NCBI GenBank assembly: GCA_021806045.1
Contig: JAJZDI010000007.1
Coordinates: 106,803-139,604, forward strand
DNA: 32,802 bases
Source of the DNA: Actinomycetes bacterium
GTDB taxonomy: Bacteria > Actinomycetota > Acidimicrobiia > Acidimicrobiales > RAAP-2
Reading direction: 5' to 3'
Below, piece by piece: positions 20,843-32,802 of this stretch. Under the pieces are notes generated by a model. It saw nothing but the letters and a program-made list of their open reading frames with translations. It did no database searches and had not been told where the DNA came from. Positions within the stretch are counted from its first letter, which is position 1; every line of letters starts with the position of its first letter. The translations under genes were made by a program, and so were the position numbers.

Positions 20843-20891
20843 TGCGTCCTCCTGTGGGTGGGACTACGAGGTCGGGCGGCGCGCCGCGGCG

Positions 20892-20907
20892 GCCGGGAGG
20901 GCCCGGC
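20892..20907. terminator. GC-rich hairpin after dcd
   Basis: GCCGGG and CCCGGC pair around a four-base loop, ten bases past the dcd stop in the 74-bp gap before the next minus-strand gene. The short stem without a U-tract makes this a weak terminator candidate. Confidence 0.35.
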
Positions 20908-20916
20908 GTGGCGGCG

Positions 20917-21483
20917 TCACCGGCGGAAGTTGTCGGCGTAGCGGCTGGGCGTCGGCCCCCACTGGCCCTGGTACTTCGAGCCGAGCTCGGACGAACCATA
21001 GGGGTGCTCAGCGGGGGTGGTCATCTCGAGGAAGCTGATCTGACCGATCTTCATGCCCGGGTAGACGGTGATGGGCAGGTTGGCGACGTTGGAGAGCTCG
21101 AGGGTGAGGTGGCCGTCCCAGCCGGCGTCGACGAAGCCGGCCGTGGAGTGGATGAGGAGGCCCAGGCGCCCGAGGGAGGACTTGCCCTCGAGGCGGCCGA
21201 CGAGATCGTCGGGCAGGGCGACCCGCTCCTTGGTGGAGCCGAGGAGGAACTCGCCGGGGTGGAGGATGAGGGGGTCCTCGGCGCCGATGTCGACCAGCTC
21301 GGTCAGGTCCTCCTGGTCCTCGCGCACGTCGATGACGCGGCTGGTGTGGTTGCGGAAGATCCGGAAGTACTGGTCCACGTGGAGGTCGACCGACGACGGC
21401 TGGATGCACCCCTCACCGAGGGGGTCGATCACGATGCGGCCGGCGTCGAGCGCCTCACGGATGGAACGGTCGGAGAGCACCAT
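20917..21483 (-). CDS. dcd: dCTP deaminase (possibly bifunctional with dUTPase activity)
   Basis: A 188-residue trimeric enzyme of the dUTPase fold. [36 protein letters not shown] holds the nucleotide-binding Arg/Ser and the catalytic Glu, and [22 protein letters not shown] is the C-terminal lid. It converts dCTP to dUTP; in mycobacteria the homologue goes on to dUMP, and sequence alone does not settle which applies here. There is no clear ribosome site before the ATG, and minus-strand TATCGT is nine bases upstream, so a leaderless start is plausible. The first 38 codons and about 100 bp of upstream DNA are duplicated at 22495-22708. Confidence 0.95.
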
Positions 21484-21583
21484 GCCGGATAGACGATAGT
21501 GGGCCTCCGGGCACCGGGGGGAAGTCCGGCCACCTGGGCGTCGGGGCGGGCCGGACGGCGCCGTTCATCTAGGGTCTGGGCCG
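21370..21583. repeat. 214-bp direct repeat, copy 1 (dcd 5' end and upstream region)
   Basis: Positions 21370-21583 match 22495-22708 at 213 of 214 bases, offset by exactly 1,125. The only difference is G at 21463 versus A at 22588, synonymous in a Ser codon of dcd. Copy 1 includes the first 38 codons of the functional dcd gene plus 100 bp upstream. Confidence 0.97.
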
Positions 21584-22494
21584 CAGACATTGGCGCGCTC
21601 AGGCCAGCGAATTCTGGGGGTAGGAGCCAGGCGCGCGGGTCGCCGTGAGGAACATCGTCCGGAAGGGGTGAGGCGGGCCATGCGTACTTCGGGGCCGCGT
21701 GAGCAGGGCGGGCGGCGATGTGAGGACCGGGTCGGAGGCGGCACACGGCCCAAGCGAAGCGGGTAGTCCTCACCGCCGAAGGTCTGCTCCCGCTCGTGCT
21801 CCGCGACGTGGACGGCGAGAGCCACCTTCTCGTCACGCTGCGAGTCTGGGGGCTCCTTCCGGATCTTGGCGGGATAGGCGATGATCTGCCAGGCGTCGAG
21901 GATCTAACGAAGGTGCCTCTCGCCTACCCGTCCGCAGAGCAGGACGGCCAATCTTCATCACAAGAGGTTGATCCCCGGGATCAGTTTGAAGATGACGGTC
22001 AGGATTCCCAGGACGAGCCCGGCGACCGCGAGCCCTTTGCTATCGGGCATCCGCGAAGAGCGTGACAGGCCAATCCCGCTGAAGATGATCGCGAGCACTC
22101 CCATGATGATCCCGATGAAGATTCCGAACAAGGGAATCAAGCTGAGCGCCGCTCCTACGATCCCAAGGGTGCCACCCGTCTTAGCGAGGGTGTTCGCTTC
22201 CCCGGGTTGCATGTAGGGAGCGCCTTGGGCGTAGGGGTTAGCGTCGTAGTACACCTGCTGCCGAGGGTCGAGAGGGTACGGAGACATGCCCTGCGGCGGC
22301 TGCGCAGCTGTCGGCGGATACCACCTGCCGTCGGGGGCCAGCCACCACCCCGGCCCTGGCGGCGTTGCCGACTGGTACCAATTCCCGCCAGCGTCTTGCC
22401 ACCATCCTGACGACTCAGTTCCGCTCATGTTCTTCCCTTCACCGGCGGGCTCTTGCTGATGTCAGAGCGAACACGCCCGCTTCGCATGATCGGC
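21584..22494. other. 911-bp unique segment between the 214-bp repeats
   Basis: This inserted segment separates dcd from the hydrolase gene. It holds the DUF4190-like gene (21958-22428) and the end of the truncated dcd copy. The remaining 374 bp (21584-21957) carry no convincing gene. One minus-strand stretch, about 21903 down to 21760, has coding-like codon choice (ILDAWQIIAYPAKIRKEP and onward, ending near GGEDYPLRLG) but follows an in-frame TAG and has no start, so it may be a gene remnant. No integrase, transposase or terminal inverted repeats were seen. Confidence 0.6.
21958..22428 (-). CDS. Small membrane protein, DUF4190-like, with two GWW motifs
   Basis: A 156-residue protein. Residues 8-20 (GWWQDAGGNWYQ) and 26-39 (GWWLAPDGRWYPP) are two copies of the motif found in the proteins at 5022 and 5732. 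A Pro/Gln/Tyr-rich linker to about residue 80 precedes two membrane segments: TLGIVGAALSLIPLFGIFIG extending to IIMGVLAIIFSGIGL (88-122) and GLAVAGLVLGILTVIFKLIP (132-152). That arrangement with a GLAVAGLVLG core is typical of DUF4190. The ATG is preceded by AAGGGAAG. It lies 33 bp behind the truncated dcd copy, whose duplicated promoter may now drive it. Function unknown. Confidence 0.8.
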   Translation of the reverse strand: MSGTESSGWWQDAGGNWYQSATPPGPGWWLAPDGRWYPPTAAQPPQGMSPYPLDPRQQVYYDANPYAQGAPYMQPGEANTLAKTGGTLGIVGAALSLIPLFGIFIGIIMGVLAIIFSGIGLSRSSRMPDSKGLAVAGLVLGILTVIFKLIPGINLL

Positions 22495-22608
22495 CTGGTC
22501 CACGTGGAGGTCGACCGACGACGGCTGGATGCACCCCTCACCGAGGGGGTCGATCACGATGCGGCCGGCGTCGAGCGCCTCACGGATAGAACGGTCGGAG
22601 AGCACCAT
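22462..22608 (-). pseudogene. Truncated second copy of dcd (48 codons)
   Basis: The duplicated dcd start at 22608 gives the same first 38 residues ([15 protein letters not shown] and onward), then leaves homology at the repeat border and runs through ten unrelated codons to TGA at 22462. All active-site residues are missing, so it cannot be an enzyme. The upstream 100 bp is identical to that of dcd, so it is probably still transcribed, and transcription would continue into the DUF4190-like gene. Confidence 0.9.
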
Positions 22609-22708
22609 GCCGGATAGACGATAGTGGGCCTCCGGGCACCGGGGGGAAGTCCGGCCACCTGGGCGTCGGGGCGGGCCGGACGGCGCCGTTCATCTAGGGT
22701 CTGGGCCG
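22495..22708. repeat. 214-bp direct repeat, copy 2
   Basis: Second copy of the dcd 5' segment, lying 39 bases before the hydrolase start codon. If the 1,125-bp unit is removed, dcd and the hydrolase become a simple divergent pair about 140 bp apart, which is probably the ancestral arrangement. Confidence 0.97.
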
Positions 22709-22747
22709 GGTCGGCGAGGGGCGAACGACTCGAACGGGGAGGGAACC

Positions 22748-24271
22748 ATGCGGTGGACTCGATGGGCGGTGGCTGCCGCCGCCTCGGTGGTGGCCGTGAC
22801 CGCGGCCGGGTGCACCTCGGGCGTGGGGACGGCGTCGGGGACGGGCCCGGGCGGGAACGGCCCGGGCGGGAACGGCACCCACCTCATCGCCGGACGGGTG
22901 ACGCCGGCCGCCGGGCCGGTACCGGTGGCGGCCCCCCTCACCGGTGGCACGGGGATCGACCTGGTCTCCGCCGGCTCCGTGCCCGCCCTGCCCACGGGGT
23001 GGGTGGAGGCCGAGTACTCGGTGGCCGGCACCGCCACCTCCTACCGGGCCATGGGTCCCCTCCCCGGCGACGGCCGGTTCCACCTGGCCCCGAGCGGGAC
23101 GGCCAGCTACAAGACGCGGATCGTGGTGCGCCGCCCGCCGGCGTCGAAGTTCAACGGCACGGTGGTGGTCGAGTGGTTGAACGTCAGCGGCGGGCTGGAC
23201 GCGGCGCCCGACTACACGTACCTGGCACCCGAGCTCATCCGGGCCGGCTACGCGTGGGTGGGGGTATCGGCGCAGTACATCGGGGTGGAGGGCGGTCCGG
23301 TGGCAGTGCAGACCCCGGTGAGCAACCTGGGGGGTGCCGGCAAGGGGCTGGTGCACGTCGACCCCGCCCGCTACGGAAGCCTCCACCACCCGGGCGATGC
23401 CTTCTCCTATGACATCTTCACCCAGGTGGGTCGGCTCCTCCGGAACCCCGGCGCGGTGGACCCCCTCGGAACGCTGCACCCGCACGTGCTCCTGGCCGCC
23501 GGCGAATCGCAGTCGGCCATCATGCTCACCACGTACGTGGACGGGGTCCAGCCCCTCGAGCACATGTACGACGGGTTCCTCATCCACAGCCGGTCGGGGT
23601 CGGCCGCGCCGCTCGGGAGCCCGGGCACGGGGATCGACATCACCCAGGGGATCGGCGGCCCGCCCACGCGCATCCGCACCGACCTGCACGCCCCCGTGAT
23701 CATGGTGGAGACGGAGTCGGACGTGGTGGGGCTGCTCAATTACCTGCCGGCGAGCCAGCCCGACACCACCCGCATCCGCACGTGGGAGGTGGCGGGCACG
23801 GCACACGTGGACCTGGCCCAGCTGGGTGCGGTGGCGAAGCTGTTCGGGTGCTCCACGCCGGTGAACGCCGGACCGGACGCGTTCATCGTGCGGTCCGCGC
23901 TGGCCCACCTGGATACGTGGGCCCGGGGCGGGGCGGCGCCACCCCATGCACCCCGGTTCGAGATCGCCGGGGGGAAGTACGTGCGCAACGCCGACGGGAT
24001 CATCGAGGGCGGCATCCGCACGCCGCTGGTCGACGTGCCCGTCGACGTGCTGTCGGGGCAGCCGGGACCGGGCGGGTCGGTGGCCTGCCTGCTGGCCGGC
24101 TCGACCACACCGCTGCCTGCATCGCGACTGGCCCAGCTGTACCCCTCCCGGAGCGCCTACCTGGCGGCGTACGCCAAGTCGACCGACGCAGCCATCGCCG
24201 CCGGGTTCGTCCTGCCGGCGGACCGGGCGGCCATGCTGGCCCTGGCCCAGCCGGACCGGATCGCCGGGTGA
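22748..24271 (+). CDS. Secreted alpha/beta-hydrolase domain lipoprotein
   Basis: A 507-residue exported hydrolase. The N-terminus has two Arg, a hydrophobic stretch (WAVAAAASVVAVTAAGC) and a lipobox-like AAGC with Cys22, followed by a Gly-rich linker, so it is probably a lipoprotein. The body matches a large actinobacterial alpha/beta-hydrolase family: YKTRIVVRRP, FNGTVVVEWLNVSGG, the nucleophile motif GESQS with Ser254, and AGTAHVD near residue 355 as the likely catalytic His. The substrate is unknown, probably an ester. GGGGAGGG lies just before the ATG. Copy 2 of the 214-bp repeat ends 39 bases upstream, so its promoter may have been affected. Confidence 0.85.
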   Translation: MRWTRWAVAAAASVVAVTAAGCTSGVGTASGTGPGGNGPGGNGTHLIAGRVTPAAGPVPVAAPLTGGTGIDLVSAGSVPALPTGWVEAEYSVAGTATSYRAMGPLPGDGRFHLAPSGTASYKTRIVVRRPPASKFNGTVVVEWLNVSGGLDAAPDYTYLAPELIRAGYAWVGVSAQYIGVEGGPVAVQTPVSNLGGAGKGLVHVDPARYGSLHHPGDAFSYDIFTQVGRLLRNPGAVDPLGTLHPHVLLAAGESQSAIMLTTYVDGVQPLEHMYDGFLIHSRSGSAAPLGSPGTGIDITQGIGGPPTRIRTDLHAPVIMVETESDVVGLLNYLPASQPDTTRIRTWEVAGTAHVDLAQLGAVAKLFGCSTPVNAGPDAFIVRSALAHLDTWARGGAAPPHAPRFEIAGGKYVRNADGIIEGGIRTPLVDVPVDVLSGQPGPGGSVACLLAGSTTPLPASRLAQLYPSRSAYLAAYAKSTDAAIAAGFVLPADRAAMLALAQPDRIAG

Positions 24272-24406
24272 GGTGGGGCGGAGTCGGGGTTGGGGGTTGG
24301 GTCGGCCGGGAGGGGTGGCTCGGGGTCGCGTGGCCGGTCTCCGGGTGGGCCGCTCCTGGCTGGCAGTCCGGGGCAGGCGGCGGTGCCGTCACGGCAGCAA
24401 AGGAAG

Positions 24407-24412
24407 TAAGGT
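24407..24412 (+). promoter_or_regulatory. Likely -10 box of the tRNA-Gly promoter
   Basis: TAAGGT lies 14 bases before the mature tRNA 5' end, a normal distance for a tRNA promoter. The -35 region is not clear. The rest of the 24272-24426 gap is GC-rich with no gene. Confidence 0.4.
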
Positions 24413-24426
24413 GTCGCCCACCTTCT

Positions 24427-24500
24427 GCGGGCGTAGTTCAGAGGCAGAACATCAGCTTCCCAAGCTGAGAACGCGGGTTCGATTCCCGTCGCCCGCTCCA
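24427..24500 (+). tRNA. tRNA-Gly (anticodon CCC), CCA encoded
   Basis: All arms fold: acceptor GCGGGCG with CGCCCGC, D stem GTTC/GAAC, anticodon stem TCAGC/GCTGA with loop TTCCCAA (anticodon CCC, reading GGG), T stem GCGGG/CCCGT around TTCGATT, discriminator T and genomic CCA. The 74-nt gene is complete. The accessory region begins directly after it; no second copy of the tRNA 3' end was found in the window. Confidence 0.96.
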
Positions 24501-24538
24501 TTGTGACGTCGCGAGACATCGTAGACAGTCAGCGCCGC

Positions 24539-24625
24539 TCACGGCAGGGGCTGGTCGTCCTTCGAGGGATCCAGGATGAGTGGCCGGGTGCCCTTGGTCG
24601 GTACCCCATAGCTGATCAACCTGAC
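24539..24625 (-). pseudogene. Small gene of the DUF4338 cluster, 3' part (cut off by IS256)
   Basis: This minus-strand stretch reads from just after the IS256 target copy to a TGA at 24539 (QVRLISYGVPTKGTRP, then LILDPSKDDQPLP) with codon use like a real gene. It continues the peptide broken at 28528-28732. Joining the two at the duplicated target AGGGACCAG, with one G removed from the right-hand copy, gives one 96-codon frame. The stop is 38 bases from the tRNA 3' end. The protein family is unknown. Confidence 0.65.
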
Positions 24626-24726
24626 CTGGTCCCTCAGAACTGGTCCACCCACGTGAGAGCTGTAGCTGGTGGTCCTGGATAGAGCCCCGGCACGTGGTGG
24701 GAATCCGAGCGTGACCCTCGGTGTGC

Positions 24727-25523
24727 TCAGCCCGTGATCTCGAGCTGACCGTCCGCAGTCTCGCGCGAGACATGCAGCGCCGCCATGGACTCTTCGGAGA
24801 GGTAACGACGGGCGACGGCCCACTCGTCGTGTTGGTCGGCGAGCACGGCGCCGATCAAGCGGATCGCGGCGGTGTCGTTCGGGAAGATGCCCACGACACG
24901 ACTCCGGCGCTTGATCTCCTTGTTCAGGCGCTCCAACGGATTGTTGGACCACGTCTTGCGCCAGTGGGCCTGGGGGAAGGCGCTGAACGCGAGGACGTCG
25001 GCCTTGGCGCCGCGCAGGAGCTCGGCGGCCTTCGGGAGCCGGGGCGCGAGGGCGTCGGTGACCTCGTCGTAGCGGGCGGCGAGCTTGTCGGGATCGGTCT
25101 GGGCGAAGATCGAGCGGAAAGCCGCTGCCACCATCTCCTGGTCACCTTTCGGGACCCGGGCGAGGAGGTTCCGGGCGAAGTGGACCCGGCACCGCTGCCA
25201 AGACGAGCCCGAGAAGCATTTCGCGATTGCCGCCTTCAGCCCGGCGTGGGCGTCGGAGATCACGAGGCGGACCCCGGTGAGCCCCCGGTCCTTCAACGAG
25301 CGCAGGAAGCGGGTCCAGAAGGTCTCGTCCTCGCTGTCACCGATGTCGAGGCCGAGGACCTCACGGGCGCCCTCGGCGCTGATCCCGGTGGCCACGACGA
25401 CCGCCCGGGAGACGACCTGGCCGAGGGCGTCGTCCCGGACGGCCACGTAGGTGGCGTCCAGGTACACGTAGGGGAAGGCGATGTGGCCGAGGGTCCGGTT
25501 GCGGAAGGCCTCGACCCGCTCGT
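24727..25523 (-). pseudogene. IS256-family transposase, C-terminal part
   Basis: Starting from the IS21 border this frame reads DERVEAFRNRTLGHIAFPYV and onward, with the catalytic residues: Asp in YLDATYVAVRDD, Asp in LVISDAHAGL and Glu in NNPLERLNKEIKRRSRVVG, the DDE set of mutator transposases. It also has the IS256 segment WQRCRVHFARNLL. It lacks its own start. The N-terminal part is at 27991-28420; joined exactly at 25523/27991 the two give an uninterrupted 408-residue transposase. As it stands it should be inactive. Confidence 0.93.
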
Positions 25524-25526
25524 CGT

Positions 25527-25626
25527 GTCCATGGCCATGAGAAAGTCCCCGCTGGTGGCCAGCTGAGGTCCCCGCTCGTGGCCACGAAAAGTCCCCGCTG
25601 GTGGCCAGGGGAGGTCCCCGCCCCTC
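25527..25626. repeat. Left-end subterminal repeat array of the IS21 element
   Basis: GTCCCCGCTGGTGGCCA starts at 25545 and 25591, with a variant (GTCCCCGCTCGTGGCCA) at 25568 and a partial copy at 25614: an exact 23-bp period. The terminal copy (25527) is 18 bp before the first. The flanks alternate AAA and GAG. These are probably IstA binding sites. Confidence 0.85.
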
Positions 25627-25667
25627 ACTGAACCATCCATGTCAGTGCCCCCTCCGGTCGGCACGGT

Positions 25668-25686
25668 GGTGATGCCTGTCATCACC
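25668..25686. promoter_or_regulatory. Hairpin just upstream of istA
   Basis: GGTGATG and CATCACC pair around CCTGT, 22 bases before the istA start and directly ahead of its ribosome site (GGAAGGG). It could limit istA expression, for example by stopping transcription entering from outside, but this is inference. Confidence 0.4.
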
Positions 25687-25708
25687 GACCAACCGGAAGG
25701 GACACCCA

Positions 25709-27151
25709 ATGCTGTCAGTGAGGAAGAGAATGGAGATCCAGGACGCCTACCGCGAGGTCGGCACCTACCGCGCCGCAGCCGAGATCTGCGGCACGACCCC
25801 GAAGACCGTCAAGCGCGTCGTCACGGCCACGGAGGCACCCGCGCGCGAGCCTCGGACTCGCAACTACGAGCCCGTGCGGGAGCTCGTGGCGGCCAAGGTG
25901 AAGAAGACCGAGGGGCGCATCAGCGCGAAGCGGTTGCTCCCGTTGGCGACGGTCGCCGGCTACGCGGGTTCGCCCCGGAACTTCCGCCGTCTCGTCGCCG
26001 AGGAGAAGGTCGCCTGGCGCAAGACCAAGGGGCGGGGCCGACGACCGGGCGTGTGGATCCCCGGCGACGTCGTCTGCTTCGACTGGGGGGAGCTGGGCTC
26101 CCTCTACGTCTTCTGCGCCGTGCTCGCCTTCTCGAGGATCCGCTTCGTCTTCTTCGCCGACAATTGCGGTGCCGAGGCGACGATGACGGGCCTCGCGGCC
26201 TGCTTCGAGTACCTGGGGGGAGTCCCCAAAGTGGCCCTCACCGACCGGATGGGCTGCCTCCGGGCCGACACGGTCGCCGACGTGGTCGTGCCCACGCCTG
26301 ACTACGTGCGGTTCGCCGCCCACTACGGCTTCCGGCCCGACTTCTGCCTCGCGGCCGACCCCGAGTCGAAGGGTCTCGTCGAGAGCCTCGTCGGCTACGT
26401 GAAGTCCGACTTCATCATCCCCGAGGAGCTCGAGGATGCGGCCACGGCGAACGACAAGGCGCCCGTGTGGATGGCCGAGGTGAACACCCAGGTCCACAGC
26501 GAGATCTGCGCGGTCCCCCTCGAGCGCCTCACCTCGGAACGCCCGCTCCTTCGCCCGCTTCCGTCGCTGCGGCCGCTCATCGGGAAGTCGGTGGTGCGCA
26601 AGGTCGACAAGCTGTCCTGCGTCCGCTTCGGATCGGCCCGCTACTCGGTCCCGAACGAGCACATCGGGGCCCAGGTGACGGTCGTCGTGGCCGGCAAGGC
26701 CATCGAGATCCTCGTCTCGGGCGAGGTGGTCGCCACCCACGACCTCGTGGTCCCAGGCGAGACCTCGGTGAAAGACGAGCACTACGGAGGTCCCCGTCCG
26801 GCACCGAACCGGGCCGTCAGGCCCAAGAGCGACGAGGAGAAGGCCTTCGTCGCACTCGGCGCAGCCGCCGCCGAGTTCATCGCTCGTGCCGCAGCTGCAG
26901 GCTCGACCACGCTGGCCTCCGACCTGAGAGAGCTCGCCGGCCTCGAGTCCGCCCATGGCCGCGACGTGCTCATCGCCGCGATCGAGCGCGCCGTCGAGTT
27001 CTCCCGCTTCCGTGCGAGCGATGTGCGATCGATCATCGAGGCCGGTCTGGCCGCCCACCGACCGGCTGAGCCGGGATCTGCCGTCATCGTCGAACTGCCG
27101 AGTGCTCCGAAGCGTTCGCTGTCGGACTACGCCATGCGCGACCTGTCGTGA
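25709..27151 (+). CDS. istA: IS21-family transposase IstA
   Basis: A 480-residue transposase. The N-terminal helix-turn-helix (about 8-40, AYREVGTYRAAAEICGTTPKTVKRV) binds the element ends. The DDE catalytic core has Asp125 (VCFDWGELG), Asp179 (VALTDRMG) and Glu225 (PESKGLVESLVGY). A C-terminal beta-barrel region (VRKVDKLSCVRFGSARYSVP) is also typical. GGAAGGG is about eight bases before the ATG. Its stop overlaps the istB start as GTGA, the coupling usual for istAB. The gene is intact. Confidence 0.96.
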   Translation: MLSVRKRMEIQDAYREVGTYRAAAEICGTTPKTVKRVVTATEAPAREPRTRNYEPVRELVAAKVKKTEGRISAKRLLPLATVAGYAGSPRNFRRLVAEEKVAWRKTKGRGRRPGVWIPGDVVCFDWGELGSLYVFCAVLAFSRIRFVFFADNCGAEATMTGLAACFEYLGGVPKVALTDRMGCLRADTVADVVVPTPDYVRFAAHYGFRPDFCLAADPESKGLVESLVGYVKSDFIIPEELEDAATANDKAPVWMAEVNTQVHSEICAVPLERLTSERPLLRPLPSLRPLIGKSVVRKVDKLSCVRFGSARYSVPNEHIGAQVTVVVAGKAIEILVSGEVVATHDLVVPGETSVKDEHYGGPRPAPNRAVRPKSDEEKAFVALGAAAAEFIARAAAAGSTTLASDLRELAGLESAHGRDVLIAAIERAVEFSRFRASDVRSIIEAGLAAHRPAEPGSAVIVELPSAPKRSLSDYAMRDLS

Positions 27152-27921
27152 GCACCACCGCCCCGGCACTCCCGGCCGACCTGGAGGCCGGCCTTCGACG
27201 GCTGCGCCTCGCCGCCATGCGGCGCCTCGCCCCCGAGCTGCTCGTCGCCGCGAAGACCCAGCGATGGTCGCCCGAGGAGCTGCTGCGCACGTTGGTCGAG
27301 GCCAAGCTCTCATCCCGGGACGAGTCCAACACGAGGAACCGCCTGAAGGCGGCGGCCTTCCCCGTGCACAAGACCCTCGAGGAGTTCGACGTCGCCCTCT
27401 CTTCGGTGAAGCAGGCCACCCTCTCCTACCTCACCAGTCTCGAATGGGTCCGGGCCCACGAGAACCTCTGCCTCGTGGGGCCCGCCGGCACGGGCAAGTC
27501 GCATCTCCTCGTCGCCCTCGGCCATGCGGCCGTCGACGCCGGCCACAAGGTGCGCTACTTCACCGCCGCCGAGCTCGTCGAGGCCCTCTACCGGGGCTAC
27601 GCCGACAACTCCGTCGGACGCCTCATCGAACAGATCGTCCGGGCCGACCTCGTGCTCATCGACGAGGTCGGCTTCGCCCCGCTCGACCACACCGGAGGGC
27701 AGCTGCTGTTCCGGCTCGTCGCCGCCGCCTACGAGCGGCGGTCCCTCGGAATCGCGAGCCACTGGCCTTTCGAGGAGTGGGGCCGCTTCCTCCCTGAGCA
27801 GACCACCGCCGTCAGCCTCCTCGACCGCATGCTGCACCACGCGACGGTCGTCACGACCGAGGGCGAGTCCTACCGGATGCGCGAGGCGCGTCAGAAGGGA
27901 GGGCGCCCGCCCAAGCCTTGA
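27148..27921 (+). CDS. istB: IS21-family helper ATPase IstB
   Basis: A 257-residue AAA+ ATPase related to DnaC, which assembles on target DNA and activates IstA. Walker A is GPAGTGKS (111-118), Walker B LVLIDEVGF, and SHWPFEEWGRFL plus LLDRMLHHATVVTTEGESYRMR are family-typical. The GTG start overlaps the istA stop. It ends about 15 bp before the right-end repeats. Confidence 0.96.
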   Translation: MSTTAPALPADLEAGLRRLRLAAMRRLAPELLVAAKTQRWSPEELLRTLVEAKLSSRDESNTRNRLKAAAFPVHKTLEEFDVALSSVKQATLSYLTSLEWVRAHENLCLVGPAGTGKSHLLVALGHAAVDAGHKVRYFTAAELVEALYRGYADNSVGRLIEQIVRADLVLIDEVGFAPLDHTGGQLLFRLVAAAYERRSLGIASHWPFEEWGRFLPEQTTAVSLLDRMLHHATVVTTEGESYRMREARQKGGRPPKP

Positions 27922-27935
27922 CGATCAGATCAAGA

Positions 27936-27987
27936 GGGGCGGGGACTTTTCCTGGCCACCAGCGAGGTCATCAACTTGGCCATTGAC
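27936..27987. repeat. Right-end subterminal repeats of the IS21 element
   Basis: Read inward on the minus strand, copies begin at 27987 (terminal, GTCAATGGCCA), 27969 (GACCTCGCTGGTGGCCAG) and 27946 (partial, GTCCCCGCCCC), spaced 18 and then 23 bp. The spacing equals that of the left end, but there are fewer copies. Confidence 0.8.
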
Positions 27988-27990
27988 ACG

Positions 27991-28420
27991 CGAGGCCGGC
28001 ACAGATCCGGGACACCTCGGACTTGGAGATGCCGGCCTCGACGCCCATGGCGGCCACCAGGTCGTCGACCGACCGGGTTGAGACACCGTGCACGTAGGCC
28101 TCCATGACCACCGCGTAGAGGGCCTGGTCGATCCTCCGGCGGGGCTCCAAGAGGGACGGGAAGAACGAGCCGGCACGGAGCTTCGGGATGGCGAGCGCCA
28201 CGTCACCGGCCTTGGTCGACAGCGTCTTCGGACGCGATCCGTTGCGGTGGGTCGCCCGGGTGTCGGAGCGCTCGTAGCGGCCGGCTCCGATCTTCTCGGC
28301 GGCTTCGGCCTCGATGAGCTGCTGGAGCGCCCACTGGGCGAGCTCACGGACGAGATCGATGCCGTCTCCGGCGCGGAGCGCGTCGAGCAGCTCGGACAGG
28401 GCAGAATCGGACAGAGCCAT
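27991..28420 (-). pseudogene. IS256-family transposase, N-terminal part
   Basis: The ATG at 28420 has GAGGAG about nine bases upstream. The frame holds the DNA-binding N-domain: LAQWALQQLIEAEAAEKIGA, the TRATHRNGSRPKTLSTKAGD segment, and DDLVAAMGVEAGISKSEVSR just before the break. It then reads six foreign codons of the IS21 end and stops. It continues in frame at 25523. Confidence 0.93.
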
Positions 28421-28527
28421 CGGTGTGATCTCCTCGTTGTGCACTTGGCGTACACACCGAGCATCACGCCGGTGGCTCACCTCATGGTGGACCGGCCCCG
28501 AAACCCCACCACGTGGGGGGACTCATA

Positions 28528-28732
28528 CTGGTCCCCTCCACTGGTCCGCGAACTCGACCGGCGTGCGCATGCCGCTCTGGAATCGACACAAGGCAACACG
28601 AGTTCCCTGGCTCAGCTGCTCCATGTGACGGACGAGGCGTTGCAGATCGTTGCCTCTACTCACGTGGCGCCTCATGTAGTTCGCGAAGTACTCATGGTTC
28701 TTTACGCGGAACTGGACTGTCGAGAGCTTCAC
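28528..28732 (-). pseudogene. Small gene of the DUF4338 cluster, 5' part (cut off by IS256)
   Basis: From GTG 28732 this reads MKLSTVQFRVKNHEYFANYM, then about 46 further residues to FADQWR at the IS256 border; its present stop lies within the IS256 end. Joined to 24625-24539 with one G removed from the duplicated target, the product is 96 residues, basic at the N-terminus, with no membrane segment or recognisable family. It lies 50 bp downstream of the DUF4338 gene on the same strand and may have been the last gene of that cluster. No clear ribosome site is visible; a hairpin lies just upstream. Confidence 0.6.
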
Positions 28733-28739
28733 AGTTGAT

Positions 28740-28771
28740 ATCGGAGGTCGACCTTGCGGCCGGCCTCCGAT
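28740..28771. promoter_or_regulatory. Hairpin between the DUF4338 gene and the small gene
   Basis: Fourteen-base arms (28740-28753 and 28758-28771) pair at 13 positions, one a G-T pair, around TTGC. It begins 11 bases past the DUF4338 stop. Its left arm contains TCGGAGGTCGACCTT, which recurs at 32532. It could be a terminator without U-tract, a processing site, or a recombination-associated structure. Confidence 0.55.
28741..28755. repeat. 15-bp direct repeat bordering the cluster, copy 1
   Basis: TCGGAGGTCGACCTT is identical to 32532-32546. The two copies bracket the three intact genes of the sigma-like / ATPase / DUF4338 cluster. Confidence 0.8.
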
Positions 28772-28782
28772 CTCTTGTTCGA

Positions 28783-29964
28783 CTAAGTGGGCTCGGCAGG
28801 TTCGAACCGGTCCTGCGTACTTGCCTGACCCGGAACGAGCTCCGCAAGTTCACTCGACAATCGCATCGAAGCGCGCTTCCACTGCTTGAACTCCGGCCTA
28901 CGCTCAGCGCGCGGAATCGCCCACCTCGTGCGGTAGTGCGCGGCGATGTCCTCCATTGGGTAGGCGATCGGTTTGATTACGTCTGTCTCACCTCGGAGGA
29001 AGGCCCTCCACCCGTACGACAGCGGAGCTGCAAACACTTCGCGCTTGATGCCGTGCTTCAAAAGATCGCCGGACAGGCCCAGGCGTTCGAGGCCCGAACG
29101 GATCGTCCTGATCTTCCAGTTGGGCCCATCGCCGTATCTGTTCCCACGGAATCTCTCCTGTTCTGACACCAGGGCCACCAGGCTCTGGAAGACGGCGTCC
29201 GAGAACTGGAAGTGGCCAAAGCCCTCGGTATAGCCGATTGGCTCAAATACCTTCCGGTCGCCCAGCCGCAGGCGGTTGTAGATTGACGAACGTCCAAGTG
29301 CAGAGGACGTCGTGACGAGCACGGGACGCGATATCTTCTCCTCGTCCCGGATTGTCGTCCGGACGCCCTTGTACTTCGCCTCGAGGAACGCCACGATCTC
29401 ATCGGAGACCGCGCAGAGGGCCACGAGCTTTCCGGCGATCAGCTGTCGGTATGGGTCGACCGCGCCGAGCACAAAAGCATCGAAGATGTTGTACAGGCGG
29501 TCCTGTCTCTGTGCCTGATCCCACCCGATGAGGCGGTCTCGCACGCCGAGGTTGAATACGGGATCCCCGAGGGCGGCGATCCCGATGAGCTTGCCGTTCG
29601 CCTGATCAGTAACGAGAAAGCGAGTACGACGACCGTAGCCCTGGGAGACGGGGACGGCCCAGTGCAGACTGGCGAAGCGGAACAACGCCGCCTCCTCCGG
29701 CGTCTCTACGGCCCGGATGCGAGGGAGGATCCCCGCGGGGTCGACGTCGGAGCCGTCGGCAAACCGGTCCAGGAGTTGATCCTCCCACTCGTGGATGAAC
29801 GGGGCTGCCTTCAACAGGGCATGTCGACGCTGGGTGGAATGCATGGAGCGGGCGACGTCCTTGCCGTCACCTTCGGGTGGTACGAGCTGGCCGCCTCGGA
29901 ACTCGAATCCCGAGGCGACCAGCTCCGTGATGACCATCCGACGAACCTCGGTCAGACGCTGCAA
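28783..29964 (-). CDS. DUF4338 protein, DruA-like (Druantia-related)
   Basis: A 393-residue protein recognised as DUF4338, the family of DruA from the type I Druantia anti-phage system. Family-like segments are RFLVTDQANGKLIGIAALGD (116-135), LGVRDRLIGW (139-148), DAFVLGAVDPYRQLIAGKLVALCA (162-185), LVTTSSALGRSSIYNRL (216-232) and IGYTEGFGHFQF (243-254). Its biochemical activity is not established. The start is TTG 29964 with GGAGGAGG eight bases upstream; no in-frame ATG or GTG is available. It lies 42 bp after the ATPase stop in the same reading frame, so only one TGA separates the two. No DruE-like helicase is present. Confidence 0.8.
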   Translation of the reverse strand: MQRLTEVRRMVITELVASGFEFRGGQLVPPEGDGKDVARSMHSTQRRHALLKAAPFIHEWEDQLLDRFADGSDVDPAGILPRIRAVETPEEAALFRFASLHWAVPVSQGYGRRTRFLVTDQANGKLIGIAALGDPVFNLGVRDRLIGWDQAQRQDRLYNIFDAFVLGAVDPYRQLIAGKLVALCAVSDEIVAFLEAKYKGVRTTIRDEEKISRPVLVTTSSALGRSSIYNRLRLGDRKVFEPIGYTEGFGHFQFSDAVFQSLVALVSEQERFRGNRYGDGPNWKIRTIRSGLERLGLSGDLLKHGIKREVFAAPLSYGWRAFLRGETDVIKPIAYPMEDIAAHYRTRWAIPRAERRPEFKQWKRASMRLSSELAELVPGQASTQDRFEPAEPT

Positions 29965-30006
29965 TTGCGCATCCTCCTCCCGCCGGAGCCTTTCATCTGC
30001 CGGCGG

Positions 30007-31779
30007 TCAGGCAAGATCGCCGGTCACCTCCACATCGGGCTCCTGAACGATGAGGTCGATGTGATCCTCCAGGAGGGTGAAGGCCGCGTTCAGTCGCCGG
30101 GACCACTCGATCCGCTCGCTGACGTACCAGATTTTCCCCTCCTCATTCGTATCGAGCTCGCACTCGCCGAGCACGAACAGGAGCAACTCCAGGGAGGCCC
30201 GTATCCGGGCACCCTCGTGCCCCTCCTGAACGGCGTACACGTCGGTGAAGAAGCGGTGCGCGGTGTTGATCAGGAGCACCATCTGACCGCCACGCTGTTC
30301 GACTCGGTAGAAGGGAGCGTCCGTCACGCTCTCTCGCTCGACCAGGTAGGGGCGGGCGTCGGCCTCCTTCTGCTTCTGGTCCGCAATCAGATCGGGCGGC
30401 AGTCCCGTTTCCCTCGCCAGGCGGTCGACCTCGCGACGCATGTTGTCCTCGGCCTCCTGGTTCGCGTCCTCGCTCGTCGGACGCCGACGGATCAGGTGGG
30501 CGGCTTCCTCCATGACCGCCTCCGACGCCTTGGGTACGTCAGGGCTCTCTTCGCGACCGACGTTCCGATCTGCCCGCTCCTCCTCGTAGCGCTTCGACAA
30601 CGAGGAGATGACGCGAGGGAAGCCGGCCTGCCGCAGGTGGTCCCAGATGCGGTCCGAAATGGAGATCTGCTGCTTGGCGGTGGTCACGCCGAACTCCTCG
30701 TCCAGGGCGGCCGGAAAATCGAGCTCGAACCCGAGGTACCGGTCGTTGTTCTGGAACACGAGGAGCGGGGTCCGGGTGACCACGTCGATCTGCCGGCCGT
30801 TGCGGCAGACGATGATGCCGTTGTTCTCCTTCCGGATCGCGAACCGGGGATTCGCGTTCTTCGACGTGGCGGCCTTGGACTTGTCCTTGGATAGGAAGCC
30901 GGGGGGCATGAACGAGACCCGCATGGTCACTTCGCCCATCGACTTAGCATGGTCGTCCTTGACCTCGAACTTGAGGGGCGGGAGTGCCTCGGCACGGTCG
31001 TCGTCGACGTCGTAGAAGCGGTATCCGGGGGTGATGAAGAGCGGATCGATCGGGCCGACCGCCTTGCCGTTCACCGAGATTGACGTCTGGCGGAGAAATC
31101 CCCGGTAGACGAGACCGAAGTGCTGGAGGAGGTTGGTCTCCAGCGCGGTCGTCGTCTTCCACGTGATCTTGTCCAACTTGTCCCAGACCACGACGGTCCG
31201 AAGCGCGCCGACTCCTCCAGGGAAGTTCTCTTCGGCATAGCTCACGATCCATGCGGGCAGTGCGGACTCCGTCGGCGTCGCAATCAGGAAGCGACCAGAC
31301 TTGTCACGCTTGGCCTGCCGGACCTCGTCGACGTCGATCGTCACCCCGAAGAACGGCCCGCCGTCCACCCGGGAGAAGACGCTGAACGCCTTCCCCTGGG
31401 ACACGGAGGCGCTGGGCAGTCCGTAGCCGAAGCGTCCGAAGAGGTTCCGGCTGCCCTCACGGTCCGTTCCACCCCACCGTGACGCGGCGCCGACCATGCC
31501 CGGCACCATGCCGTAGCCGTCGTCGAGCACCGCGACCTGGGTCGGCTTTGCATCCGACTTCGGCCCATAGCCGAACGCGAGGTGGACGTTCTCTGCTCCG
31601 GCCTCGATCGAATTGTCGATGAGCTCGTCGGCCGCAGTCGCGGCGCTCTTGTAGCCGAGTTCCCGGATTGACTGGATGAACGCTCCGGCGATAATGATGT
31701 CGAGCGGTTCGTCATTGGTGGAGATGCTGTCCACGTACTCCTGCTGACGCTTGTGAACTGCGTCGGGCTTGCTAACCAT
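30007..31779 (-). CDS. MORC/MutL-type GHKL ATPase
   Basis: A 590-residue protein with a GHKL ATPase domain at the N-terminus: ELIDNSIEAG (N box, Glu52 and Asn56), VLDDGYGMVPGM (86-95, DxGxGM) and GRFGYGLPSASVSQG (115-129, ATP lid). A transducer-like S5 region follows (about 200-400: VVWDKLDKI, NGIIVCRNGRQI, GFELDFPAALDEEFGV), then a charged helical section (430-500) and a C-terminal domain with LLINTAHRFFTDVY. This is the layout of prokaryotic MORC-like ATPases in predicted defence and modification clusters, thought to change DNA conformation with ATP. The ATG at 31779 has AAGGGAAG upstream; an in-frame extension looks noncoding. Second gene of the cluster. Confidence 0.88.
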   Translation of the reverse strand: MVSKPDAVHKRQQEYVDSISTNDEPLDIIIAGAFIQSIRELGYKSAATAADELIDNSIEAGAENVHLAFGYGPKSDAKPTQVAVLDDGYGMVPGMVGAASRWGGTDREGSRNLFGRFGYGLPSASVSQGKAFSVFSRVDGGPFFGVTIDVDEVRQAKRDKSGRFLIATPTESALPAWIVSYAEENFPGGVGALRTVVVWDKLDKITWKTTTALETNLLQHFGLVYRGFLRQTSISVNGKAVGPIDPLFITPGYRFYDVDDDRAEALPPLKFEVKDDHAKSMGEVTMRVSFMPPGFLSKDKSKAATSKNANPRFAIRKENNGIIVCRNGRQIDVVTRTPLLVFQNNDRYLGFELDFPAALDEEFGVTTAKQQISISDRIWDHLRQAGFPRVISSLSKRYEEERADRNVGREESPDVPKASEAVMEEAAHLIRRRPTSEDANQEAEDNMRREVDRLARETGLPPDLIADQKQKEADARPYLVERESVTDAPFYRVEQRGGQMVLLINTAHRFFTDVYAVQEGHEGARIRASLELLLFVLGECELDTNEEGKIWYVSERIEWSRRLNAAFTLLEDHIDLIVQEPDVEVTGDLA

Positions 31780-31796
31780 GATGTGTACTTCCCTTC

Positions 31797-31812
31797 TGCA
31801 GCCTTTGCGGCC
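31797..31812. repeat. 16-bp repeated element upstream of the ATPase gene
   Basis: TGCAGCCTTTGCGGCC occurs here and at 32513-32528. Here it ends 18 bases from the ATPase start codon, next to its ribosome site; the other copy is 67 bases upstream of the sigma-like gene. Confidence 0.75.
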
Positions 31813-31870
31813 GCGCTGTTGGTCTGTTGGTACTGCTCTCGATGCCCTGGTGGGCAACGAACTTGGCCGC

Positions 31871-32446
31871 CTAGGCGGCGCTCGGCCGCCGGCTACGGAG
31901 TTGGAAGTGCTCTGTGGCCAACGGGCGGATCCTCGCGACCGCCCGGCTTACTGCTCGGGGATTCATGGACAGGTCAGACGCGATCTCCCCCTGCGACCGC
32001 CCCTCCGCCAGCATCGACGCGATCTGCCGATCGCGTCCTTCCAGGCACTTCAGGAACGCCTTAATGGACTCCCACTCCTCGATGGCGACGAAGGAGCCGT
32101 CGAGAGTTGCCGTGAACTGATCTTCCTCGCCAGTCAGTTGCAGGCGCTCAAGAGACTCCGGCCGATTCCGACGTTCGAAGGAAGGTCGCGATCTTGTCAA
32201 CGAGCGGGCCACGCGGTCCTTCGCCCTCTGCTGGAGCCGGCCTCCGAACGAACCACGCGACGCGTCGAACCCCTTGCGGGCCGACACGATGGTCTCGTCG
32301 CACACTCCCAGGAACTCGTCGGCGCTCCACGTCCAGCGTGGTGTCGCACGGCGGATCACGCTCCGGCATGCTCGGAGATCGCCATGATCTATGAGTTCGC
32401 CGGACTCCAGCGCTGCCGACGCGGGTGCAACTTCAGCCTCAGACAT
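31871..32446 (-). CDS. Sigma-70-like regulator
   Basis: A 191-residue protein with two parts of a sigma-70 factor. Residues about 42-85 (ADEFLGVCDETIVSARKGFDASRGSFGGRLQQRAKDRVARSL) resemble region 2, including the FD..RGSF..RL..RA..R pattern. Residues about 137-172 (RDRQIASMLAEGRSQGEIAS, then DLSMNPRAVSRAVARIR) form a region-4-type helix-turn-helix. The region 2 match is weak, so it could be a regulator derived from a sigma factor. AGGAGG is eight bases before the ATG. It is first in the minus-strand cluster, 91 bp ahead of the ATPase, and may activate or tune its expression. Confidence 0.75.
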   Translation of the reverse strand: MSEAEVAPASAALESGELIDHGDLRACRSVIRRATPRWTWSADEFLGVCDETIVSARKGFDASRGSFGGRLQQRAKDRVARSLTRSRPSFERRNRPESLERLQLTGEEDQFTATLDGSFVAIEEWESIKAFLKCLEGRDRQIASMLAEGRSQGEIASDLSMNPRAVSRAVARIRPLATEHFQLRSRRPSAA

Positions 32447-32512
32447 TGGCCGGACCTCCTCGTTGATTGGAGAAGGTCGCTCGCCGGAGGCGGGCTTTAG
32501 GTCCCTGCTTCA

Positions 32513-32528
32513 TGCAGCCTTTGCGGCC
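32513..32528. repeat. 16-bp repeated element upstream of the sigma-like gene
   Basis: Second copy of TGCAGCCTTTGCGGCC, three bases from the 15-bp repeat copy at 32532-32546. The two elements sit together in the leader region of the first gene of the cluster. Confidence 0.75.
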
Positions 32529-32531
32529 ACG

Positions 32532-32546
32532 TCGGAGGTCGACCTT
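32532..32546. repeat. 15-bp direct repeat bordering the cluster, copy 2
   Basis: Exact copy of TCGGAGGTCGACCTT at 28741-28755, 86 bases upstream of the sigma-like start codon. Confidence 0.8.
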
Positions 32547-32675
32547 CAGTTCAGTTGTGTGAGTACAGGATACCAGGGGTGTCAAGGCCGGGCCGACCTT
32601 GTTGCTCCGGATTGAACTGTCTCACTTACAACTATCCCCGCCCGTCCCGAATCTCGGACGGCGCGTCCCGATCTC
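32547..32675. other. Intergenic region with inverted repeats ahead of the cluster
   Basis: No gene. CAGTTCA (32547-32553) is inverted at 32613-32619 (TGAACTG), and AGTTGTGTGAG (32553-32563) is inverted, with a two-base gap, at 32621-32633 (CTCACTTACAACT). These arms flank about 50 bases. They may be operator sites for the cluster or the end of another element. No promoter with good spacing could be assigned, although minus-strand TTGACA occurs at 32580-32585. Confidence 0.4.
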
Positions 32676-32802
32676 TGAATCGCCCCGGGTTCGGTGACTG
32701 CTCCACCTCTTGAGAGGATGGAGCCATGCCAGAAGAGAAGAGCCGGAGGCGCACGCCCTACCCGGCGGAGGTGAGGGAGCGGGCGGTCCGACTGGTCCTC
32801 GA
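32676..32802 (+). mobile_element. Left end of an IS3-type element (continues past the window)
   Basis: TGAATCGCCCCGGGTTCGG begins at 32676, 50 bases before a transposase start, and resembles IS3-family ends beginning TGA. The border is tentative because the other end is outside the window. Confidence 0.5.
32726..32802 (+). CDS. IS3-family transposase OrfA (5' end only)
   Basis: Twenty-five codons from ATG 32726 to the window edge read MPEEKSRRRTPYPAEVRERA, then VRLVL. The pattern RR.YP.E.RERAVRLVL is the usual beginning of the IS3/IS911 OrfA helix-turn-helix protein. TGAGAGGATGGAG lies upstream as a possible ribosome site. The remainder is outside the window. Confidence 0.8.
   Translation, partial: MPEEKSRRRTPYPAEVRERAVRLVL

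What the first reader, a model, noticed from the sequence alone, without database searches (positions are those of the whole stretch)
28741..32546. Sigma-like regulator + MORC-type ATPase + DUF4338/DruA-like protein: candidate undescribed defence module
Seen: three same-strand genes with short gaps (91 and 42 bp), less extreme GC than the core, next to a tRNA and among insertion sequences. Known: MORC-like GHKL ATPases occur in predicted defence and modification clusters, and DUF4338 is the DruA family of type I Druantia. Inference: this combination, without a DruE-type helicase, nuclease or methyltransferase in the window, may be a compact anti-phage or anti-mobile-element system in which the ATPase senses or remodels DNA and the DUF4338 protein acts on it.
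Basis: partly seen in the sequence, partly recalled or inferred. Interest (0 to 1): 0.85.

Follow-up and report, generated by a model that had tools for sequence, protein, structure and literature searches.

The report
MORC–DruA cassette without Druantia helicase
A bacterium carries a three-gene cassette that pairs a MORC-type ATPase with DruA, a component of the Druantia anti-phage system, beside a sigma-like regulator and without the Druantia helicase; related pairs occur in distant bacteria, on plasmids and on phage-like contigs, so it looks like an unnamed Druantia-related defence module.

Summary
Three intact minus-strand genes lie at 28783-32446: a weak sigma-70-like protein, a MORC-type GHKL/S5 ATPase and a Druantia-type DruA, with gaps of 91 and 42 bp. 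The trio recurs, in order, in another family of the same order. The core pair, ATPase directly followed by DruA, stands in 11 distinct loci that I inspected (Actinomycetota, Rhodobacterales plasmids, viral contigs). In 6 a DruE1-type helicase lies nearby; in 5, window included, none is linked. So this is kin of Druantia, but DruB, DruC, DruD and DruE are missing and it is not a type I Druantia. DruA is modelled as a GNAT fold (in print for DUF4338), with phage Mu Mom the nominal best match. The ATPase is closest to SMCHD1 and MORC structures. I infer a defence module in which a MORC clamp traps invading DNA and DruA acts on it, the sigma-like gene setting expression; the DruE-less form is either self-standing or a relic. 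The contig ends at an insertion sequence just upstream, so a DruE there cannot be wholly excluded, though none was found in the 97% complete genome. No paper in the library searched holds both Druantia and MORC, or Druantia and GHKL.

The parts
31871..32446 (-). sigma-70/ECF-like regulator, 191 aa, first gene of the trio
   Evidence: Sigma70_ECF just over cut-off, TIGR02937 4.2e-6 below cut-off; 38% identical orthologue in the same place in G382
30007..31779 (-). MORC-type GHKL + S5 ATPase (590 aa from ATG 31779; a TTG at 31857 gives 616 aa)
   Evidence: HATPase_c_3 4.5e-15; invariant GHKL motifs and S5 lysine in 9 aligned homologues; MORC2 best solved relative by profile, 5.3e-12; model closest to SMCHD1/MORC4/MORC3, Z 21.6-21.2
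28783..29964 (-). DruA (PF14236/DUF4338), GNAT fold, 393 aa, short type
   Evidence: PF14236 2.8e-73, PADLOC DruA1 2.7e-120; model pLDDT 82.8, pTM 0.80; GNAT fold, Mom nominally top
32501..32558 (-). conserved non-coding block 55-112 bp upstream of the sigma-like gene; candidate promoter/operator or leader
   Evidence: 85% identical over 60 columns to G382 at the same distance; local alignment score 35 against a maximum of 14.5 in 2000 shuffles
32676..32802 (+). left end of an IS3-like element (orfA start by eye) at which the contig breaks
   Evidence: same 127 bp at the end of G401:C17 (100%) and, at 93%, at the start of an rve/HTH_21 transposase frame in G401:C196
27971..28480 (-). N-terminal part of a Mutator-family transposase bordering the cassette; the C-terminal part is at 24730-25467, the two separated by IS21
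   Evidence: PF00872 profile 10-144 here and 164-377 at 24730-25467
25709..27921 (+). IS21-type istA + istB between the two parts of the Mutator-family gene
   Evidence: rve/Mu-transpos_C_2 and IstB_IS21 2.3e-62

Best explanation
The trio is a DruE-less defence module of Druantia kinship. Shown: a MORC-type ATPase with intact ATP-binding motifs and a Druantia-type DruA of GNAT fold form a gene pair that recurs across phyla, co-diversifies and often lies beside a DruE1-type helicase. Inferred: the ATPase, like MORC and MutL proteins, closes on DNA as an ATP-gated dimer clamp and so traps or compacts incoming DNA; DruA works at the trapped DNA, as a DNA-binding or DNA-modifying (Mom-like) enzyme; the sigma-like protein drives or tunes its own operon through the conserved upstream block. 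In loci with DruE the helicase would then process the DNA; in the window form the block would rest on the clamp plus DruA alone.
For: Trio in the same order and strand in G382, another family (ATPase 68%, DruA 66%, sigma-like 37.5% identity). ATPase gene directly followed by DruA, overlapping or within 118 bp, in 11 inspected loci: window, G382, G036, G307, Leisingera, Roseivivax THAF30 and Paracoccus plasmids, viral contigs L158, L159, L160, L162. In the 396-genome phylum sample the ATPase is in 16 and PF14236 in 19 genomes, both in 5 (0.8 expected if independent), neighbours in 4 of the 5; without the own genome, which was chosen for the pair, both in 4 and neighbours in 3. DruE1-type helicase close by in 6 of 11; DruD1 7.4e-120 at G307; a 955-996 aa protein family is shared by MORC-DruA loci G036 and L120 and by DruA loci L090 and L112 without the ATPase. 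DruA and ATPase distances correlate: Mantel r 0.75, p 1e-4 (10 loci); 0.85, p 0.0012 (8 long-type loci). Purifying selection. MORC-type folds rank first; MORC2 clamps DNA and compacts it by ATP hydrolysis (PMC12216690, abstract and passages). The Roseivivax plasmid (complete record) and viral records L158 and L162 (may be fragments) carry the pair with no DruE in the record; L162 has a Mu F-like gene about 4 kb from the pair. In Roseivivax and Leisingera the shared 7-kb cassette ends just after the sigma-like gene.
Against: No functional test. DruE is absent from the binned genome, so the locus may be a relic; the contig breaks at an IS 230 bp upstream of the trio, so DruE there cannot be excluded (DruE lies upstream of the pair in L159). 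ATPases of the same tree group occur without DruA in the 14-18 kb fetched (G632, G553). Most PF14236 proteins of the phylum sample are stand-alone or transposase-fused forms. The sigma-like protein is a weak family match, and no homologue was found in 7 of the 11 loci. The window/G382 DruA is of the short type, apart from the DruA of the other 9 MORC loci. The second ATPase frame of L159 starts inside the GHKL domain and may be broken or misread. Related sequences inflate the Mantel test.
Confidence: 0.5

Rival explanations
1. Degenerate or split Druantia-like system: DruE and other subunits were lost through insertion-sequence activity or lie beyond the contig break, and the trio is a remnant or works only with them.
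For: IS elements on both sides; 6 of 11 related loci have DruE nearby; DruE upstream of the pair in L159.
Against: All three genes intact and under purifying selection against G382, whose 87.6-kb contig with the trio has no DruE match (G382 has an unlinked DruE3-like gene on another contig); no DruE in the 97% complete own genome; the Roseivivax plasmid and two viral records also lack it.
Confidence: 0.3
2. A modification or protection module: DruA is a Mom-like base-modifying enzyme that marks or masks DNA, the ATPase loads it, and the product shields host or phage DNA from restriction rather than attacking invaders.
For: GNAT fold with phage Mu Mom as nominal top match, Z 9.4 over 182 residues; a DruA-domain transposase matches Pfam Mom at 2.7e-5, though below the curated cut-off (24.3 against 27.1 bits); L162 carries the pair near a phage head gene; polar and aromatic residues such as R142, D143, W148, Y172, K179, Y198, Y229 and R308 are invariant in 11 aligned DruA, 8 of them 27-29% identical to the window's.
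Against: Mom is tied with many other GNATs (Z within 1); a canonical acetyl-CoA loop is not evident by eye; no modification measured.
Confidence: 0.25
3. Not defence: a regulatory or transposon-related locus in which the DruA domain and ATPase serve a mobile element.
For: PF14236 domains are fused to DDE transposases in G116 and G220; the trio sits among insertion sequences.
Against: The window DruA belongs to the Druantia-type clade and is single copy in its genome; no convincing terminal repeats frame the trio (one 19-nt pair, 84% complementary, does lie on both sides, one arm inside the IS3-like end); the pair sits by DruE, DruD and PD-(D/E)XK genes elsewhere.
Confidence: 0.1

Closest known systems
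Druantia type I (DruA, DruB, DruC, DruD, DruE; composition recalled, models in PADLOC)
   Same: DruA of the DruA1 model; related MORC-DruA loci hold a DruE1-type helicase and in one case DruD1
   Different: window has no DruB, DruC, DruD or DruE; it has a MORC ATPase and a sigma-like gene that are not among the type I components
MZA (MzaB ATPase; composition recalled) and prokaryotic MORC/paraMORC restriction-modification loci (PMC2292703)
   Same: GHKL + S5 ATPase; MzaB model matches the N-terminal 214 residues (6e-21)
   Different: 74 bits against an equivalog cut-off of 850; no helicase, nuclease or methylase gene in the trio
phage Mu Mom DNA-modification enzyme
   Same: GNAT fold over 182 residues of the DruA model
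   Different: no Pfam Mom match of the window DruA at E up to 1; activity unknown
eukaryotic MORC2/3/4 and SMCHD1 ATPase modules
   Same: closest solved structures of the ATPase by profile (MORC2) and by fold
   Different: no other domain matched in Pfam; own helical and alpha/beta C-terminal part; bacterial operon with DruA

Membership tests
Druantia type I | DruA protein | tested here: met
   PADLOC PDLC00002 DruA1 2.7e-120; PF14236 2.8e-73
Druantia type I | DruE helicase in the locus | tested here: not met
   none in the own genome with a DruE protein or with PDLC00013; the contig ends 356 bp beyond the trio, at an IS
Druantia type I | DruB, DruC, DruD | tested here: not met
   trio proteins match none of these models; 18 other window frames gave no Dru model; beyond the contig break and elsewhere in the genome not tested
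MZA system | MzaB over its curated cut-off with its partner genes | tested here: not met
   74.3 bits against 850, N-terminal part only; no Mza model among the other window frames
MORC/paraMORC GHKL ATPases | GHKL ATP-binding motifs plus S5 domain with conserved lysine | tested here: met
   invariant E78, N82, D112, G114, G116, G141, G144, G146, K395 in 9 rows; model aligns over GHKL+S5 to SMCHD1/MORC
MORC family sensu Iyer 2008 | MORC-specific motif in the S5 domain | tested here: inconclusive
   by eye a stretch of the S5 region fits the printed motif except one position; no tree with eukaryotic MORC was made
Mom family | Pfam Mom match and DNA-modifying activity | tested here: not met
   no PF25680 match of the window DruA at E up to 1; fold similarity only; activity not testable here
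GNAT acyltransferase fold | GNAT fold | tested here: met
   top structural matches are mostly GNAT proteins; DUF4338 called GNAT in PMC10853773 (passage)
sigma-70/ECF factors | score over curated cut-off | tested here: inconclusive
   Sigma70_ECF 21.2 against 21.1; Sigma70_r4_2 and TIGR02937 below theirs
Anti-phage defence system | protection against phage or plasmid | not testable with these tools
   needs an experiment

The most novel reading that the evidence does not exclude
A self-standing, helicase- and nuclease-free defence system in which a bacterial MORC clamp, targeted or licensed by a Mom-like GNAT protein (DruA) and run by its own sigma-like factor, silences or immobilises invading DNA without cutting it, a bacterial counterpart of MORC-based transposon silencing; it can lose or gain the DruE helicase as an add-on.
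Probability: 0.25. Interest if true: 0.85.

Novelty: new variant of a known kind. Interest (0 to 1): 0.6.

Why it matters
What DruA does in Druantia is, as far as I know, open. A recurrent MORC-DruA pair that occurs both with and without DruE splits the system into modules that can be tested apart, gives DruA a partner with a known kind of mechanism (ATP-gated DNA clamp), and would tie bacterial defence to eukaryotic MORC silencing. In one search no paper of the library held both Druantia and MORC, and none held both Druantia and GHKL (open-licence PMC text only; whole-word terms).

Tried and rejected
Horizontal transfer of the trio between families (near-identical 12.3-kb contig in MAG G401): rejected as evidence, since that contig also carries neighbouring sequence (window 20512-32802, 99.95%) and is better read as the same species misbinned. 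The DruE2/4-type gene of G401 (C130) as the missing partner: no ATPase or DruA hit on the 14.0 of 14.2 kb fetched. The G382 helicase on C17 (L109): DruE3-like beside a type IIG enzyme, not linked to the trio. Terminal inverted repeats around the trio: 16 pairs of 14-24 nt, of which one (28560-28578/32739-32757, 19 nt, 84%) lies on both sides; taken as chance. Rfam on 27800-32802: one sub-threshold hit outside the trio. Promoter/terminator scan near shuffle level. A viral-contig scan with a 16-base upstream pattern gave 22 stretches, not followed. RNA folding of the upstream stretch gave z -2.0 and -3.0 but no common structure by eye. Homology of the window and Rhodobacterales sigma-like proteins: not shown. 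Viral-contig scans with the single window proteins found nothing; with alignments they did. Sigma-like protein on plasmids: no match. ATPase in the phage collection: 2 unannotated records, 27-30% identity, not followed. PDB profile search with DruA: nothing significant. Plasmids: 40 of the 49 records with an ATPase match were listed and only the 4 best of them are also in the DruA list of 14; the other 9 were not seen. Roseivivax THAF40 was seen by coordinates only and is not counted. The profile used to call Druantia-type DruA was built from 4 MORC-linked DruA, so it leans to them; it also gave a marginal 2e-4 for G137. Papers: PMC2292703 read in parts 1-2 of 4 and by find; PMC10853773, PMC12216690, PMC12458937, PMC12904381, PMC8565338 by passages; PMC13192584 by find (no hit); PMC8011034 not read (one search failed); others as search listings. 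Composition of Druantia types and MZA, and Mom chemistry, are recalled.
Full report
Observation. The three minus-strand genes are present as described, with gaps of 91 bp (from the ATG at 31779) and 42 bp, GC 63-65% against 67.5-76% further left. Window end and contig end coincide. The own genome has 3.10 Mb in 43 contigs, 97.5% complete, with one DruA and one such ATPase.

Families. Protein 3 is a Druantia-type DruA (PF14236 2.8e-73; PADLOC DruA1 2.7e-120). Protein 2 is a GHKL ATPase (HATPase_c_3 4.5e-15) with an N-terminal match to MzaB far below its cut-off. Protein 1 is at best a divergent ECF-like sigma factor. In an alignment of 9 ATPases the GHKL motifs and the S5 lysine are invariant. 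The ATPase profile finds human MORC2 best among solved structures (5.3e-12; MutL 3e-7), and the predicted model (pLDDT 76.3, pTM 0.62) aligns best to SMCHD1, MORC4 and MORC3 (Z 21.6, 21.3, 21.2); MORC2 (18.7), Hsp90 (18.1) and MutL (16.8) follow. By Foldseek E-value alone TRAP1 (Hsp90) is first and MORC2 third.

Conservation of the cassette. In 396 genomes of the phylum the ATPase was found in 16 and PF14236 in 19; five genomes have both, and in four of them (own, G382, G036, G307) the genes are neighbours; in the fifth (G116) the PF14236 protein is a transposase fusion on another contig. The own genome is in these counts by choice. Six of the 19 PF14236 genomes carry Druantia-type DruA by my profile, plus a marginal one; 4 of the 6 have the ATPase, G275 cannot be judged because its contig starts just upstream, and G131 lacks it in 16 kb. 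The full trio, in order, is in G382 and, as a near-identical copy of the window's end, on a contig binned as G401. On plasmids the ATPase matched 49 records (40 listed) and DruA 14; the four best ATPase records (Leisingera, Roseivivax THAF30 and THAF40, Paracoccus) are the ones of the listed 40 that are also in the DruA list. Leisingera and Roseivivax carry ATPase, small gene, ATPase, DruA and a convergent gene that the record calls sigma-70 in Roseivivax; the 7-kb stretch is 81.6% identical and ends just after that gene, beyond which Leisingera has DruE and a NERD protein and Roseivivax does not. Viral contigs L158, L159, L160 and L162 have the pair too; L159 and L162 have two ATPase frames, the second of L159 starting inside the GHKL domain. 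L162 has a Mu F-like gene (2.2e-8) and a weak portal match 3-5 kb away. In all, 11 distinct inspected loci, with the window/L024/G401 copies counted once.

Relation to Druantia. DruE1-type helicases lie near the pair in G036, G307, Leisingera, Paracoccus, L159 and L160; G307 also has DruD1 and a PD-(D/E)XK protein, G036 a DruK-like one. A family of 955-996 aa, without a PADLOC model, stands after DruA in G036 and L120 and also in L090 and L112, whose DruA has no ATPase beside it (phmmer E 3e-110 or lower between all pairs). No DruE was found in the own genome, on the trio contig of G382, or in the records of Roseivivax, L158 and L162 (the viral records may be fragments and the Roseivivax chromosome was not searched). 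In a tree of 29 DruA proteins, long-type DruA (9 of the 11 MORC-linked loci) and short-type DruA (L090, L091, L092, L112, L114 and others, and window + G382 as their own 100/100 clade) are separate. In the ATPase tree of 29 rows the window falls in a group of 10 (support 84/99) with L158, L159a, L162a, Leisingera, Roseivivax and Paracoccus, but also with G632 and G553, which lack DruA in the 14-18 kb fetched. So one ATPase group is paired with both DruA types, which suggests partner exchange or repeated pairing. Distances of the two partners correlate (Mantel r 0.75, p 1e-4 for 10 loci, Roseivivax left out as a near copy; 0.85, p 0.0012 for the 8 long-type loci); related sequences inflate such tests.

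DruA fold. The model of the window DruA (14-row alignment of window and viral proteins) is a GNAT fold. Foldseek gives mostly GNAT proteins at weak E-values (best 0.045). A DruA-domain transposase from G220 also matches Pfam Mom at 2.7e-5, below the curated cut-off, over an overlapping region, an independent hint. That DUF4338 is a GNAT domain is in print (PMC10853773, passage seen).

Regulation. A 58-bp block 55 bp upstream of the sigma-like gene is 85% identical between window and G382, while third codon positions of the three genes are 34-47% identical. A pattern made from these two sequences occurs once each in own, G401 copy and G382 of 298 genomes and nowhere else, so it is not a dispersed repeat. 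Promoter, operator or leader function is inferred.

Setting. On the left a Mutator-family transposase gene, in two parts with IS21 between them, borders the trio; on the right an IS3-like element begins 230 bp upstream of the sigma-like gene and breaks the contig. The G401 contig breaks at the same base.

Mechanism. MORC2 is a DNA clamp that compacts DNA by ATP hydrolysis (PMC12216690, abstract and passages), and prokaryotic MORCs were tied to restriction-modification operons with helicases and nucleases (PMC2292703). I infer that the ATPase traps DNA and DruA acts on it, DruE being an add-on effector. Which of attack, silencing or marking results is open.

Literature. No paper of the library holds both Druantia and MORC or both Druantia and GHKL; DUF4338 is in three papers. 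This covers open-licence PMC text only.

Noticed in passing
L077:2197-4068, L083:3029-4900, L084:7502-8926: DruA (PF14236) domains fused N-terminally to DDE transposases; L083 also matches Pfam Mom (2.7e-5, below cut-off). Suggests a shared Mom-like GNAT domain in transposons and Druantia.
   Followed up: partly
L070, L072, L074, L076 and others: Stand-alone PF14236 proteins of about 300 aa, often on short contigs, with an N-terminal extension of unknown kind.
   Followed up: partly
window DruA model, BFVD search: Giant-virus proteins (Faunusvirus, Yasminevirus, Dasosvirus) match the DruA model at E 2e-15 to 2e-8.
   Followed up: no
L108:2554-8559 and L107: MORC ATPases of the same tree group without DruA, beside ParB-like genes (clear in L107, weak in L108); L108 also has a clear sigma-70 gene (6.7e-16) and a type II-like methyltransferase: another MORC + sigma cluster.
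   Followed up: partly
L111:9369-12233, L112:11209-14124, L120:11631-14618, L090:11201-14068: A conserved protein family of 955-996 aa between DruA and DruE; the three members scanned (L111, L112, L120) match no PADLOC model, L111 no Pfam model either.
   Followed up: partly
window 24730-28480: A Mutator-family transposase gene in two parts with IS21 between them.
   Followed up: yes
window, one of 8 short frames: A PADLOC DrmD-model match (7.6e-40) and a weaker mad1 match on frames not rescanned one by one.
   Followed up: no
L109:2670-13600: In G382, a type IIG restriction-modification protein next to a DruE3-like helicase: a second YprA-type defence locus.
   Followed up: no
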